The translations under genes and the position numbers were made by a program. Below are positions 57,190-63,246 of a stretch of DNA of 64,000 nucleotides, piece by piece (within the stretch, counting starts at the first letter, position 1; every line of letters begins with the position of its first letter). Origin of the DNA: Natrinema amylolyticum. Its GTDB lineage: Archaea > Halobacteriota > Halobacteria > Halobacteriales > Natrialbaceae. Below the pieces are notes generated by a model. The model made no database searches. It had not been told where the DNA came from and saw only the letters and a list, made by a program, of their open reading frames with translations. The stretch spans positions 496,001 through 560,000 of the forward strand of contig NZ_JAIWPJ010000001.1 of the NCBI RefSeq assembly GCF_020515625.1, written 5' to 3'.

Positions 57190-57281
57190 CAGCCGTTCGG
57201 CTACTCGAGCCGATTCGGACGCACGCGAGATGGTGGGAACGGAGACGGGAACGACTGGTGAACGCCACTTCGCAGTCTTTA

Positions 57282-57357
57282 GTAGCCACTGAAAGTCGAG
57301 GCGCACCGAATCGCGTGCCAACATCGCGATCAGTGCGTAAATCGTTTCGGTGGCTAC
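57282..57357 (-). repeat. 76-bp terminally inverted repeat element, copy 1
   Basis: The element is bounded by GTAGCCAC(T)GAAA and TTTC(A)GTGGCTAC. Read on the minus strand it aligns without gaps to the copy at 60103-60178. The first 20 nt (GTAGCCACCGAAACGATTTA) and the last 17 nt (CGACTTTCAGTGGCTAC, which differs from copy 2 only at its first base) are nearly the same in both. It is noncoding, with an internal GATCGCG/CGCGAT inverted repeat. It looks like a miniature transposable element or structured RNA element. Confidence 0.7.
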
Positions 57358-58741
57358 GACAGCTGGCGGACCAGTAGTGGAATATTATTGGTATTATGCT
57401 ATCTACTTCGACGCTATTCTCACCCACAGTAGTCGTCTCAGTGTGGGTATCTTCGACACAGATCCTCGCTTTCGATTCCCGCTCTAATCGCTTCGTTGAA
57501 CTGTAACGTAGATACTCAAATGAGAGGATAGACAGTTGAGATGACAGTCAACCGATCCGAGAGCAGATCAGACAGCGTACTACACTGCTGTTGAAGAGTG
57601 GATATCCTCGAATCAAGCGATCCGCCGGTAACGAAGCGCCCGAGAGCGACAGCAAACGGTGTGAACTCGATCGGAAGCCGGCAACACCTGATCGCGGTCG
57701 GATACGACGAGTAGTTTCGTTGCGCCCGCTATCGGTGACGCCGTTACTCCCTTGCCGATATCGGACAATACCACGAATACATCTACAGGCGGAGCCGGTT
57801 AGCGAAGCCGAGAGATCCGTTCGAGTGTATTCACCCTAGTTTAGGGGTAGAATGTTTACGTCGGGTCAGGAACACTCGTACAGCGAAAGGTTCGAATGTT
57901 ACCATCTCGTCACTGGTATCGGCTCCAGAGAATACAAGCAGAAAACGGAAATTACGGTATGCAAGGGTGGTCTCGTCCGCGAACACCTGTTGCAGACTGT
58001 TCCGCCGAACGAGATTTCATCTCGGACAGCGGTGCTGAACCAGCGCCTTCGTCACGCTTCGTTCGTTGACAGACGTGACCACGACAAAAACCAACTGACT
58101 AACCCGTAACCAGGTCACTCTCCAGTTACGCGCCTATGTTTGTAAACCCACAGCGATCTACCGTATGATTGGTGAAACTGACTTTCACAAGAGTTCAGAT
58201 AGTGTGTTCTCTCGAGGATATCCGTTTGCCCCCGGAGCGGATGGCTACCCGAGTGAGGCGAACCCCAGGGAAGAACGGACGTCCTACCAGTCGCCGTCTA
58301 CTCGAGGACGTGAGACCGGTTGCCCATCTACTCTCGACCGATTCCTGCACCGGCGACAGAAATGAATCGAAAGAATACGGTCGACGAACACCGATTCACT
58401 CGTAGCGGAACCGCCACCAACAGTCCAGACGCGACCGCACACGGAGAGAGTCAGACGGTGATCCATCCTCCGTACTCTCGGTAGCAGAGCGACAGAAACC
58501 GATTGGCCGCTCTCGGAAGGCAGAGCGACGGGGTTCTGTGGCTTCCTCGAGGGGCGGACTAGCCGATGGAGACTGCCGGCGCGTCTCGGGACACGGGACA
58601 GTCGAGTCTCTGCGATCCGTGCGGAGAGGGAAATCGGATCCGTGTCTCCTACTCTTTCTCCTGGATCCACTCGCTCACGGACGACGGTCGTGTGCCTCAT
58701 CACGCATCGCGTCCGGTCGCTCGCTCTCTGGCCGTTTCCGT
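57358..58741. other. Long region without a recognisable gene
   Basis: About 1.4 kb between the first 76-bp element and the first acidic repeat protein gene. Frames of up to 139 codons occur on both strands, but the translations lack domains, haloarchaeal acidic bias or start signals. The stretch may contain decayed genes. The last part (58400-58740) is rich in short Ser/Arg frames that are shadows of GC-rich DNA. Confidence 0.45.
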
Positions 58742-59542
58742 TCAGTTGCCGGTCTCGACGTCGATACTTTCGTCATCGCTCTCGACGTCGTAATCGGCGG
58801 TCTCGACTTCGAGCGCGACGTCTTCCTGTTCGATATTGTAGTCGTCGGTTTCGAACTCGGTGCGACCGTCCCCGTCCTCGAAGTCGATGTCGTCGCTCTC
58901 GACGTCAAGTTCCTCGCCGAGCTGTTCGAGGTCCTGTCCGTTGACTTCGATATCGACGTCGTCGCCGTTGACTTCGACATCGATATCCGTTCCCTGGCGG
59001 GTCTCGAACTCGAACTCGTCGTCAGTCAGTTCGTAGTCGAGCGCATCCGATTCAACTTCGGCGTCACCGGCGGACTGTTGGATGTCGTAGTCGTCGGTCT
59101 CGACATCCGCGTCACGGCCGTCGTTCTCGAAGTCGATGCTATCGTCTGTGACTTCGAGTTCGTCACCGACCTGCTCGATCTCGATGCCGAGGAAATCGAT
59201 CTCGACGCCGAAATCTCTTCGATCGATCTCGACGGCCCCGTCAGTCGTCTCGAAATCCATCGTTCCGTTGTATCGCTGGTATTCGAATTCGTCCGTTTCG
59301 ACGTCGACGATATCGCCGTCCCGCTCGATCTCGTACCCGTCTTTCTCGACCTCGACCCGATCGCTGTCCCGCTCGTAATCGAGATCGTCGCTCTCGACTT
59401 CGGCCCACTCTTCTTCGTGTTCGACTTCGAAGTCCTCGGCATCGATGTCTACGTCGTCCGCGGCCGTAGCAGTCGGTATCACTGCCCCAACGATTGCTAC
59501 AACGACTAGCATGACCAGTAGTCGGTTTCGTATTCGCCTCAT
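58742..59542 (-). CDS. Secreted acidic repeat protein, paralogue 1
   Basis: 266 residues. After a short basic start (MRRIRNRL) comes a Sec signal ending near TATA-ADDVD. The rest is an almost uninterrupted run of beta-strand-like half-repeats of the form D-x-[DE]-[IFY]-[DE]-x(3-4)-D-G-x-x-V-[DE]. Examples are YEIERDGDIVDVETDEFEYQ and YDIQQSAGDAEVESD. There is no membrane anchor or lipobox. GGAGA at 8 nt before the ATG is a good Shine-Dalgarno. It looks like a beta-solenoid cell-surface or matrix protein. No known family is recognised. Confidence 0.72.
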   Translation of the reverse strand: MRRIRNRLLVMLVVVAIVGAVIPTATAADDVDIDAEDFEVEHEEEWAEVESDDLDYERDSDRVEVEKDGYEIERDGDIVDVETDEFEYQRYNGTMDFETTDGAVEIDRRDFGVEIDFLGIEIEQVGDELEVTDDSIDFENDGRDADVETDDYDIQQSAGDAEVESDALDYELTDDEFEFETRQGTDIDVEVNGDDVDIEVNGQDLEQLGEELDVESDDIDFEDGDGRTEFETDDYNIEQEDVALEVETADYDVESDDESIDVETGN

Positions 59543-59786
59543 TTTGTGTTCTCCTAGCCTGGACGTATCGTCGTCTACCCAGACTCGTGGATGCTATCTC
59601 TTCATATGGGCCGAACCCAATTAAATCTCAGACAACGTATTAGTCAGCCGATATACGCGCGGTAATGCCGTGACTGGTCCGATAGTACGTTACGTCACAG
59701 ACACTTCGTCGTCGCTACTGGTGAAACCATATATAATCGAGGTCGAATCGAGAGTACGGGACTCACCCGGGAGTTTTGGTGATGTG

Positions 59787-60044
59787 TTACACAACGGCCT
59801 CGATGACTGATGCAAAGAACCCCCTACAGGAATCGTCCGCGTGTCGCGAACTGTGTCCGCGATTTCGACATCGGCATTCGTTCCGTTCGACTGTCGGTCC
59901 CTCGCTCTCGATAGCGACTCCGTCGCTGGTCGTCTCGTTCTGAACTATCATTGTACCACCGCCTGCTGCCGCCGATATCACCATACCGAACGGACCAGCG
60001 AGCGCGAAAAACGTGGATAGCGCGAGCCGTATCGTTCGGTTCAT
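59787..60044 (-). CDS. Short, probably decayed member of the acidic repeat family
   Basis: 85 codons starting MNRTIRLALSTFFALAGPFG, a signal peptide nearly identical in opening to paralogue 2 (MNRTI). The mature part begins with an acidic stretch (TTSDGVAIESEGPTVERN), then turns into Cys/Arg-rich sequence. In another frame the same DNA reads TNADVEIADTVRD, in the style of the repeats. A frameshift near 59880 would explain this, so the gene is probably a remnant. A genuine Cys-rich tail cannot be ruled out. Confidence 0.45.
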   Translation of the reverse strand: MNRTIRLALSTFFALAGPFGMVISAAAGGGTMIVQNETTSDGVAIESEGPTVERNECRCRNRGHSSRHADDSCRGFFASVIEAVV

Positions 60045-60102
60045 GTATGGTCATTACAGTTCTCGGATCAGAGGTGTGATCGCGTTCTGGACCGCAACTA
60101 TA

Positions 60103-60178
60103 GTAACAACTGAAACGATTTACACGCCGATCGCACAGCCGTCGTGCGATCGGGTGTGCATTGACTTTCAGTGGCTAC
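60103..60178 (+). repeat. 76-bp terminally inverted repeat element, copy 2
   Basis: The element begins GTAACAACTGAAACGATTTA and ends TTGACTTTCAGTGGCTAC, with a perfect inner stem GATCGCAC-AGCCGTC-GTGCGATC. It is the same length as copy 1 (57282-57357) and in opposite orientation to it. Conservation is highest at the ends and weaker in the middle. It lies just upstream of the gene for the small acidic-family member. Confidence 0.72.
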
Positions 60179-60324
60179 TATATGTCATTCAATGAATTCT
60201 ATAAGAATGGGGTTACTGCAACACATGAGTACTCGGCAACGGACCCAATGAGACCGCAACTATCGGTCTCGGATAATTACGATTACTCGGAGAAGAAAAC
60301 GGGCTCGGACGAACGACTGGCTGG

Positions 60325-61185
60325 TCAGTCGCTTGTCTCGATGTCGAGCCCGTTCCGGTCGTTCTCGAAGTCGACGTCACGTGTCGTAACGTCGAGTCCG
60401 TTCCCATCCAGTTCGATGTCGGCATCGGCGGTCAGCGCGTCGATGCCGAAAATATCGTTTTCGAAGTCGACGTCGCGCGTCGTAACGTCGAGTTCATCGC
60501 CGTTCTGTTCGATATCGGCGGCGGCGGTCAGTACGTCGACACCGGATGCATCGTTCTCGAAATCTATCTCGTCGGTCTCGACCTCGAGTCCGTCATCGCT
60601 TCGCTCGATGTCGTGATCGTCGGTCTCGATCTCGATCTCGTCCCCGGTGACGTCGATATCGACCGGCCCAGCACCGTCGGTCTCGAGGTCGATGCTGCCA
60701 TCGCTGTCGACCTCGAAATCGATGCTATCGTCTTCGATATCGACACTGCCGTTGTTCTGTTTGATTTCGATACTGTCGGTCTCTATCTCGACGACGTTCC
60801 CGGTACCTTTGCTCTCGAAGTCGATATCGGCGGTCTCGACCTCGGCGATGTTACCGGTCCGTTCGATCTCGGTGTCGCCGGCATCGAGTTCGACGACTGC
60901 TCCGTTCTCGGTGCTCTCGAAATCGGTGCCGCCGACTTCGACAGCGACTGCGTCGTCGTCCCGCTCGATCTCGGTGTCCCCGACTTCCAAGTCGATCACG
61001 TCGCGGCCGTCCTCACGTTCGAAATCGACGTCGGCATCGTCTTCGGTTTCCGCCGCTTCCCCGCCGAATCCGACCGCTACATCGTCGCTTTCGATTTCTC
61101 CCTCGTCGATGGCAGTTGTCGGTACCGCCGTGCCGACTGTCAGTGCGAGAACGGCAACGAACGCAGTCAGTATCGTTCGGTTCAT
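60325..61185 (-). CDS. Secreted acidic repeat protein, paralogue 2
   Basis: 286 residues. The Sec signal MNRTILTAFVAVLALTVGTA ends near TTA. The mature part repeats the D-[TS]-[DE]-[IF]-E-x-x-x-[DN]-G-x-x-V-[DE] pattern (GDTEIERTGNIAEVETADID). Near the C-terminus a 32-residue unit occurs twice: DVLTAAADIEQNGDELDVTT and DALTADADIELDGNGLDVTT, each followed by RDVDFEND. No anchor is seen. It has the same architecture as paralogue 3 and is transcribed in the same direction. TATA-like ATTATACC lies about 75 nt upstream. Confidence 0.75.
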   Translation of the reverse strand: MNRTILTAFVAVLALTVGTAVPTTAIDEGEIESDDVAVGFGGEAAETEDDADVDFEREDGRDVIDLEVGDTEIERDDDAVAVEVGGTDFESTENGAVVELDAGDTEIERTGNIAEVETADIDFESKGTGNVVEIETDSIEIKQNNGSVDIEDDSIDFEVDSDGSIDLETDGAGPVDIDVTGDEIEIETDDHDIERSDDGLEVETDEIDFENDASGVDVLTAAADIEQNGDELDVTTRDVDFENDIFGIDALTADADIELDGNGLDVTTRDVDFENDRNGLDIETSD

Positions 61186-61497
61186 AGCGGGTAGTTCGGA
61201 CGGCTTCCATCACAGAGATGGAGCCACGAACCGGATCCGTTCAGGGTACACCCCAACTCGGTATAATACTTTTATTGACGTACGGGCGTGATGTGAGTAA
61301 TATAATCAAATCTGATTAACAGGATTATTACTGTTCGGTTCGGGTGTCACCGCTCGAACGGGAGAGTATTGTATCGTCGTACGCTAACAGAGTGATACCG
61401 TCACTCGAAAACCGGTACTATCCGTTCCGGAGAGAGCCGTCGCCCGTCGGATCGATCCGCCGATAAAATAAAATGGGACCAGCCGATCGTCGGCTAG

Positions 61498-62448
61498 TTA
61501 GTTGTCCTCGACCTCGACGTTTTCACCGTCGGTTTCGATGTCACGGCCGTTCTCGACTGCGAGCTCGTCGTCGGTCAGCTCGATGCTAACGTCGTCCTCG
61601 AGTTCGAGTTCGCGGTCGTCGTTCTCGAAGTCGACATCGTTCGTCACGGTTTCGAGTTCGCCTTCAGCCTGCTCGATGTCGGCGTCGCTGGTCAACGCTT
61701 CGACGCCGGTGGGATCGTTCTCGAAGTCGACGTCGCTCGTCACGGCTTCGAGTTCGCCTTCAGCCTGCTCGATGTCGGCGTCGCTGGTCAGCGCTTCGAC
61801 GCCGAATTCGTCGTTCTCAAAGTCCGTGTCGCCGTTCCGGACCTCGAGGCTGTCGCTGGTGTGTTCGATGTCGTGTTCGTCGGTCTCCAGTTCGACTTCG
61901 TCACTCTCGAGGTCGAGATCGACGCCTCCGACACCGTCCGTCTCGATGTCGACGCCGTCGTTGACCTCGTAATCGAGGCTGTCGTCGTCGATTTCGGCGT
62001 CGCTACCGTCTTGCTCGATGTCGGTGTCGCCGGCGGCGAGATCGACGGTGTCGCCGTCACTCTCACTTTCGAAGTCGGTGTCGCCGGCCTCGACTGCAGC
62101 GTCACCGTCGGATTGATCGATCTCGGTATCGGCGGCCTCGAGATCGACGGTGTCGCCGTCACTCTCACTTTCGAAGTCGGTATCACCGGCCTCGACTGCA
62201 GCGTCACCGTCGGATTGATCGATCTCGGTGTCACCGACTTCGGCATCGACCGTTTCGCGATCGTTCTCGGATTCCAGATCGACGTTATCGTACTCGACGT
62301 CCGCATCGTCACCGTCGAATTCGATGTCGGAATCGTCGTCCTCGATATCCACCCCGTCGTCTTGGGCGGCCGCCGGTATCGCCATCATGCCGACGGTCAC
62401 CGTCAGCGCGAGGAGCGTCACGAGTACAGTTTGTGTCGTTCGATTCAT
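61498..62448 (-). CDS. Secreted acidic repeat protein, paralogue 3
   Basis: 316 residues. The Sec signal MNRTTQTVLVTLLALTVTVG ends near PAAA-QDD. About fifteen half-repeats follow. One 34-residue unit (DTEIDQSDGDAAVEAGDTDF onward) occurs twice in tandem with almost identical DNA (102-bp period, 62040-62243). A 32-residue unit (EALTSDADIEQAEGELEAVT onward) occurs in tandem with a 96-bp period (61621-61813). The C-terminus ends in short acidic strands with no anchor. Of the three paralogues it has the most exact repeats, suggesting recent expansion or recombination. Confidence 0.78.
   Translation of the reverse strand: MNRTTQTVLVTLLALTVTVGMMAIPAAAQDDGVDIEDDDSDIEFDGDDADVEYDNVDLESENDRETVDAEVGDTEIDQSDGDAAVEAGDTDFESESDGDTVDLEAADTEIDQSDGDAAVEAGDTDFESESDGDTVDLAAGDTDIEQDGSDAEIDDDSLDYEVNDGVDIETDGVGGVDLDLESDEVELETDEHDIEHTSDSLEVRNGDTDFENDEFGVEALTSDADIEQAEGELEAVTSDVDFENDPTGVEALTSDADIEQAEGELETVTNDVDFENDDRELELEDDVSIELTDDELAVENGRDIETDGENVEVEDN
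61621..61813. repeat. 96-bp tandem repeats inside paralogue 3
   Basis: GTTCTCGAAGTCGAC begins units at 61621 and 61717, and a related start occurs at 61813, an exact 96-bp period. The stretch TTCGAGTTCGCCTTCAGCCT and the following GCTCGATGTCGGCGTCGCTG are identical in the two full copies. Confidence 0.85.
62040..62243. repeat. 102-bp tandem repeat inside paralogue 3
   Basis: GATCGACGGTGTCGCCGTCA begins at 62040 and again at 62142. About 90 nt after each start match with only two or three differences. The unit encodes 34 residues. Confidence 0.85.
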
Positions 62449-63246
62449 ATGTAGGTGGTCGTCACAGATTCCGGGCAGGGAGGCGGTCATCCCGGACTGT
62501 GACTGTACCAGAGACTACCGATCACACGCCCATAAAGATAAGGCAACTGATTGGTCATCGAATTAATCATTGGTAAGGTCGTAACCCTCGAGAGAGATCC
62601 TTACCGACTCGTTATCTCATATCCGACCGTTCACCGGGATAGTCGAAGGGACAGCATGGCAGAGTCGACTGGCCCTTCTCGCTACCTCGGGCCAGATAGG
62701 GGCGACGTACCGGTGCGTCAGCCCGGTCTGAAGGTCGATCGCGTTACCGAATCACGCAGACTCCGCTGGAGTACTGCCCTGATTACATCAACGGACGTGG
62801 CTGTCCTCCCGTTTCGAAATCCGATTTCGATTCGCTCGACGTGTCTGATCCGGATGAGAGGACCTGTTGTTGACAGTCCGTAGTCGTCTCTCGTCATCAC
62901 TCGCCGCCGCAATAGCGAATTGCGCAGGGCAAGCGACGGACACGGTCGCTCTCTCTGTATCAGTTCCCGGTCTCGGACACGGGTCACACGGTAGAAGGGA
63001 GGGCGCGGTCAGTCACGCTGATCACCGGGCCGAGGATTAGAGCCGACGCCGGCCGCGTACGTTCCCTCGAGTACCGAGGTCGGGACGTTCACGACGGCGA
63101 CGAAATCGGGATCAAAAGTGGACAGAGACGATTGCCAGAGTCGACTATCCGGTCCCGAAACCTGTCGAATTTGGTGGGTGAACCGCCCGTAACCACCTAA
63201 CCGATGGGTAATCGAAACTTTATGATCGTACGGAATCTACGGAAAC
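62449..63246. other. Intergenic region upstream of paralogue 3 and of the isoprenoid-type gene
   Basis: About 800 nt without a convincing gene. CTTTATGGG (minus strand, about 62530) may be the TATA element for paralogue 3, giving a leader of about 60 nt. CTTTATG at about 63218-63225 is a TATA candidate for the gene starting near 63281. Frames such as 62551-62883 on the plus strand show no domain. Confidence 0.4.

What the first reader, a model, noticed from the sequence alone, without database searches (positions are those of the whole stretch)
57282..60178. Two inverted copies of a 76-bp element with terminal inverted repeats
57282-57357 (minus) and 60103-60178 (plus) align end to end without gaps. 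The ends are GTAGCCACTGAAA/TTTCAGTGGCTAC and copy 2 has an internal perfect 8-bp stem. Ends are conserved more than the middle, and compensating differences in the stem are likely. That fits a MITE or a structured noncoding RNA. The pair brackets the first acidic gene and may mediate inversion of the 2.7-kb segment.
Basis: partly seen in the sequence, partly recalled or inferred. Interest (0 to 1): 0.66.

Follow-up and report, generated by a model that had tools for sequence, protein, structure and literature searches.

The report
Haloarchaeal IS630-type miniature transposon (84 bp)
The two inverted 84-bp repeats are copies of a tiny gene-less jumping element found in 22 well-kept and a few decayed copies in this salt-loving archaeon and in about two fifths of sampled haloarchaeal genomes, most probably moved by IS630-family transposases; it is a new, widespread member of a known kind of element.

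Summary
The host genome holds 22 well-preserved and about six decayed copies. A covariance model finds the family in 159 of 391 sampled Halobacteria genomes (43 of 86 genera). Six host copies have empty sites in relatives with exactly one TA between unchanged flanks, which demonstrates insertion with TA duplication. Insertions prefer CTAG (77 of 140 sites; 1.9% of TA sites in comparable DNA are CTAG). Haloarchaeal IS630-family elements share this preference (26 of 39), begin with the same TATAGTA and resemble the ends further in. It is therefore most probably an IS630/Tc1-mariner-type MITE moved in trans. No autonomous element with identical ends was found, and the host genome has no DDE_3 transposase. 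Compensatory changes occur in the terminal repeats and the inner stem, so a hairpin is conserved. More than a quarter of the insertions examined abut a reading frame whose new stop codon lies in the element (often adding Tyr-Ser-Ser-His). The proposed inversion of the 2.7-kb segment is not supported. New member of a known kind.

The parts
57278..57361 (-). copy 1 of the element, 84 bp including both flanking TA positions; ends partly decayed
   Evidence: model positions 1-84, 75.9 bits
60099..60182 (+). copy 2 of the element, 84 bp including both TA positions; intact TATAG...CTATA ends, subfamily with left end TAGTAACAACTGAAA
   Evidence: model positions 1-84, 100.8 bits; 100% identical over exactly these 84 bp to G072:C1:220755-220838
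60101..60115 (+). left terminal repeat of copy 2 (TAGTAACAACTGAAA)
60166..60180 (+). right terminal repeat of copy 2 (TTTCAGTGGCTACTA)
60127..60153 (+). inner stem and loop of copy 2 (model columns 29-55); base-paired with compensatory changes across copies
57280..57294 (+). terminal repeat of copy 1 on the low side (TAGTAGCCACTGAAA)
57345..57359 (+). terminal repeat of copy 1 on the high side (TTTCGGTGGCTACGA, partly decayed)
60099..60100 (.). TA, first half of the target-site duplication of copy 2 (inferred from the empty sites of other copies)
   Evidence: other loci
60181..60182 (.). TA, second half of the target-site duplication of copy 2 (inferred from the empty sites of other copies)
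   Evidence: other loci
58742..59542 (-). acidic secreted-type repeat protein gene lying between the two copies; context, not part of the element

Best explanation
The two repeats are members of one family of IS630/Tc1-mariner-type MITEs of Halobacteria. Each is an 80-bp non-coding element with 15-bp terminal inverted repeats (consensus TAGTAGCCACTGAAA) that inserts into a TA, preferably within CTAG, and duplicates that TA. It is most probably cut and pasted in trans by transposases of the haloarchaeal IS630 family whose ISs begin with TATAGTA. The TA duplication, mobility and target preference are shown from sequence; the transposase is inferred. Copies end up almost only between genes, partly (inferred) because CTAG is rare in this DNA and TA is common in stop codons. 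When a copy lands at the very end of a gene, a stop codon inside the element (usually TAT AGT AGC CAC TGA) ends the frame after four extra codons. The two window copies are separate insertions and not a unit with the gene between them.
For: 22 well-preserved and about 6 decayed copies in the host genome. Six host loci with empty sites in relatives that hold a single TA between unchanged flanks (candidates). Window copy 2 and a copy in G072 are identical over exactly 84 bp and not beyond. Identical copies in several genomes, e.g. at least 10 in G059 and 7 in G169. Target: CTAG at 77 of 140 MITE sites and 26 of 39 IS630 sites, against 1.9% of TA sites. IS630 ISs of the same genus and class begin and end with TATAGTA and match the MITE at up to 15 of the next 21 positions (consensus ends 10-12 of 21, shuffle p 0.002-0.017). 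An IS630 sits in a CTAG inside a MITE copy (L327). Genomes with MITE and with IS630 overlap more than by chance (85 of 391 have both, odds ratio 2.7, p = 3e-6; related genomes, so not independent). Bacterial IS630-family ISY100 duplicates TA, and its paper lists Tenzen & Ohtsubo 1991, titled on preferential transposition of an IS630-associated transposon to TA in CTAG (PMC2170065).
Against: No autonomous IS with identical ends was found in the IS630 loci read. 74 of 159 MITE-bearing genomes, the host included, and 28 of the 81 with many copies have no DDE_3 domain at E <= 1e-12. The match of MITE ends to IS630 ends inside TATAGTA is modest. The inner stem has compensatory changes that transposition alone does not require.
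Confidence: 0.87

Rival explanations
1. The element is mobile, but is now kept as a functional hairpin, for instance an RNA element at gene ends that affects termination, processing or mRNA stability.
For: 15 pairs with changes on both sides against 6.0 in shuffles, including the inner stem; nearly constant length (94 of 102 copies are exactly 84 nt); frequent position at gene ends, with a stop codon supplied.
Against: Family members descend from one another, so constant length is expected of any MITE, and symmetric terminal-repeat changes are expected if one transposase binds both ends. Individual copies are often missing at the same place in relatives; only one orthologous retained copy was seen, strongly diverged (L036/L270). 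No Rfam match at the copies. No expression data.
Confidence: 0.15
2. The pair is an inversion device for the 2.7-kb segment between the copies.
For: Inverted orientation; the pair brackets one gene.
Against: The copies agree at only 62 of 84 positions, a poor substrate for homologous recombination. In G069, which has no copy between the corresponding genes, the gene has the same orientation relative to its neighbours. The element occurs in many unpaired copies with their own empty sites.
Confidence: 0.02
3. A palindromic REP/PATE-like element moved by an IS200/IS605 (Y1) transposase.
For: A long imperfect palindrome with a conserved asymmetry; PATEs are common in the haloarchaeon Haloquadratum (PMC3119063).
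Against: True terminal inverted repeats and a TA duplication. According to PMC3119063 PATEs lack terminal repeats and make no target duplications.
Confidence: 0.03
4. A mobile element driven by a DDE transposase family other than IS630.
For: Several genomes rich in copies (G075, G065, G097, G157, G248, G164) hold no DDE_3 domain.
Against: TA duplication plus CTAG preference and the TATAGTA end are shared with haloarchaeal IS630s. In G157, most end sequences pair at MITE distance or belong to decayed copies; no longer element was recognised.
Confidence: 0.08

Closest known systems
IS630 family (Tc1/mariner-related) insertion sequences, here the haloarchaeal clade with TATAGTA ends (about 1.06 kb, DDE_3/PF13358)
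   Same: CTAG preference, TATAGTA ends, similar positions further in the ends; TA duplication is known for the family
   Different: Codes for a transposase; ends TATAGTAACCGTTAGAA / TATAGTAGACGTTAGAA rather than TATAGTAGCCACTGAAA; no shared internal sequence seen
Neisseria Correia element and pneumococcal RUP
   Same: Short gene-less elements in many intergenic copies (PMC10969869). From memory, RUP is linked to an IS630-type transposase and Correia ends also begin with TATAG
   Different: Other hosts and other sequences; Correia is 204 bp in the review cited (RUP about 107 bp from memory); those ends were not compared here
Haloquadratum MITEs, PATEs and small mobile repeats (SMRs; HqIRS41 is 80 bp)
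   Same: Short transposase-free mobile repeats of haloarchaea; SMRs have terminal repeats (PMC3119063)
   Different: PATEs lack terminal repeats; SMRs are reported to make no target duplication and to have ends unrelated to known transposons. HqIRS41 was not compared in sequence, so an overlap with this family is not excluded

Membership tests
MITE (miniature inverted-repeat transposable element) | short, no coding capacity | tested here: met
   80 bp; 94 of 102 aligned copies are exactly 84 nt with both TA
MITE (miniature inverted-repeat transposable element) | terminal inverted repeats | tested here: met
   15-bp repeats; perfect in 49 of 86 distinct copies
MITE (miniature inverted-repeat transposable element) | many dispersed copies and evidence of movement | tested here: met
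   22 well-preserved copies in the host; six clean empty sites
MITE (miniature inverted-repeat transposable element) | ends shared with an autonomous element that supplies the transposase | tested here: inconclusive
   TATAGTA and partial similarity with IS630 ends, but no identical ends found
IS630/Tc1-mariner-type mobilisation | insertion into TA with TA duplication | tested here: met
   loci L033, L035, L042, L043, L045, L046
IS630/Tc1-mariner-type mobilisation | preference for CTAG, as in the title of Tenzen & Ohtsubo 1991 for IS630 | tested here: met
   77 of 140 sites; haloarchaeal IS630s 26 of 39; background 1.9% of TA sites
IS630/Tc1-mariner-type mobilisation | movement catalysed by an IS630 transposase | not testable with these tools
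   needs a mobilisation assay
PATE / IS605-type palindromic element | no terminal inverted repeats, no target duplication | tested here: not met
   terminal repeats and TA duplication present
described RNA family | match to an Rfam model | tested here: not met
   no match at either copy, even at E up to 5

The most novel reading that the evidence does not exclude
An ancient, class-wide MITE of haloarchaea that targets CTAG, a rare motif reported to be methylated in many haloarchaea, and whose hairpin is under selection: a transposon-derived module at gene ends that supplies stop codons and a structured 3' end.
Probability: 0.15. Interest if true: 0.65.

Novelty: new member of a known kind. Interest (0 to 1): 0.42.

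Why it matters
It gives a likely identity and mechanism to a very common small repeat of haloarchaeal genomes: about two fifths of sampled species carry it. It also links a rare motif for which a methylase is widely distributed among haloarchaea (CTAG; abstract of PMC8281068) to transposon targeting. Copies at gene ends that supply stop codons, and compensatory changes in the inner stem, are specific, testable points. No description of this family was found in the open-access papers searched, but subscription journals and ISfinder could not be searched.

Tried and rejected
Rfam search of the region: nothing at the copies. Viral contigs: no full element; five hits to the 16-base end are chance matches in unrelated DNA, mostly of 35% GC. 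Phage records: one partial chance hit only. Autonomous partner: looked for in IS630 loci of the genus and class and by pairing all end sequences in G157 and G161; not found. Doubled ends of some IS630s (L332, L347, L352) lie next to N positions and were set aside as assembly artefacts. Joined-flank alignments at L034, L040, L044 and in some relatives at L042 and L045 show no insertion in the relative, but the junction is too diverged to place the TA, so they are not counted. The gene finder is home-made and misses some short genes, so context counts are approximate.

Full report
Observation. Their full extent is 84 bp: 57278-57361 (-) and 60099-60182 (+). The outer two bases on each side are the duplicated target TA, so the element proper is 80 bp. 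The two copies agree at 62 of 84 positions. Both strands of each fold much better than shuffled sequence with DNA parameters (z -4.8 to -6.8).

Copies. blastn of the host genome (4.71 Mb, 11 contigs) with the two copies gives 22 well-preserved full-length copies and about six decayed ones. With a consensus, 97 of 125 genomes of the family match at E <= 1e-6. A covariance model of 50 copies (R1) matches 159 of 391 genomes sampled from the class, in 43 of 86 genera and several families. Named carriers are Natrinema, Haloterrigena, Natronolimnohabitans, Natrarchaeobius and Halostagnicola species and plasmids of, among others, Haloarcula hispanica, Halomicrobium mukohataei and Natrialba magadii. 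No full element was found in viral contigs or phage records. Match counts per genome are capped by the tools and are not copy numbers.

Mobility. Flanks of host copies, joined with one TA, were searched in the genus, and the hits were aligned. At six loci (L033, L035, L042, L043, L045, L046) a relative has exactly one TA between unchanged flanks. The insertion therefore duplicates TA, and the bases outside TA belong to the target. At L036 the relative G051 holds a strongly diverged copy at the corresponding site. At other loci the relatives lack the element but the junction cannot be read. Copy 2 is identical to a copy in G072 over exactly 84 bp, and several genomes hold many identical copies, which points to recent movement.

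Mobiliser. Of 140 distinct MITE sites, 77 are CTAG; only 1.9% of TA sites in comparable DNA are. Haloarchaeal IS630-family ISs, found by their DDE_3 domain, in one large clade begin and end with TATAGTA and lie in CTAG at 26 of 39 sites. Beyond TATAGTA the consensus ends match the MITE at 10-12 of 21 positions, single ISs at up to 15 (shuffle p 0.002-0.017). One IS630 lies in a CTAG inside a MITE copy (L327). The ISY100 paper reports TA duplication by an IS630-family transposase and lists a 1991 paper titled on preferential IS630 transposition to TA in CTAG (PMC2170065). This makes an IS630-type transposase the likely mobiliser, but no IS with identical ends was found. 74 of 159 MITE genomes, the host included, have no DDE_3 domain at the cut-off used. 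Likely readings are loss of the transposase after use, or cross-mobilisation by related ISs; this step is inferred.

Structure. In 86 distinct copies aligned to the model, 15 of 34 pairs show changes on both sides (shuffles 6.0, none of 500 as high; slid controls 6-11), 8 of them in the terminal repeats with TA and 6 in the inner stem. The alignment was fitted to this structure, which favours it. An unfitted MAFFT alignment of 50 copies gives 11 pairs against 4.0. Symmetric changes in the terminal repeats are expected if one transposase binds both ends; changes in the inner stem are not, and remain unexplained.

Context. Of 66 copies examined with a home-made gene finder, 58 lay between two predicted genes, 7 could not be placed because a neighbour was missing in the stretch read, and one overlapped a predicted gene. 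Among 272 ends (136 sites), 40 are entered by an apparently coding frame, 32 of them with TA at codon positions 1-2; the commonest tail is Tyr-Ser-Ser-His-stop. At L035 the relatives' gene ends ...DWPYDD* (read directly from the alignment) and the host's ...DWPYSSH*.

The pair in the window. Copy 1 lies in a stretch without predicted genes; copy 2 lies between two acidic repeat-protein genes. G069 has a related array of acidic genes in the same orientation, without the element between the corresponding genes. There is no sign that the pair inverts the segment.

Known or new. MITEs, PATEs and SMRs are known in haloarchaea (PMC3119063) and MITEs in prokaryotes generally (PMC10969869). No description of this family was found in seven searches of the open library. 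It is filed as a new member of a known kind.

Noticed in passing
window 58742-62490 (-): Array of three acidic secreted-type proteins with repeated short D/E-rich motifs; the relative G069 has a related array of at least four such genes.
   Followed up: partly
window 59787-60044 (-): Small open frame (85 aa) with a start similar to the acidic proteins' signal peptide (MNRTIRLALSTFFALAG...), probably a gene remnant, 54 bp from copy 2.
   Followed up: no
L327 1363-2503 (G046): IS630-family IS inserted into a CTAG inside a copy of this MITE.
   Followed up: yes
L318 and L319 (G157): End-like sequences TATAATAGCCACTGAAA and TATAGTAGCCATTAAAA followed by non-MITE sequence that shares AACAGTTCTCACAC; possibly ends of another element or an IS inserted next to a MITE remnant.
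   Followed up: partly
L212 567-650 and 801 (G061): A MITE copy and a further end-like sequence about 600-900 bp from an IS630 copy.
   Followed up: no
L163 1412-1495 and 1502-1585 (G058); G075:C5:50921-51090; G097:C15:51838-52010: Two MITE copies side by side, a few bases apart.
   Followed up: no
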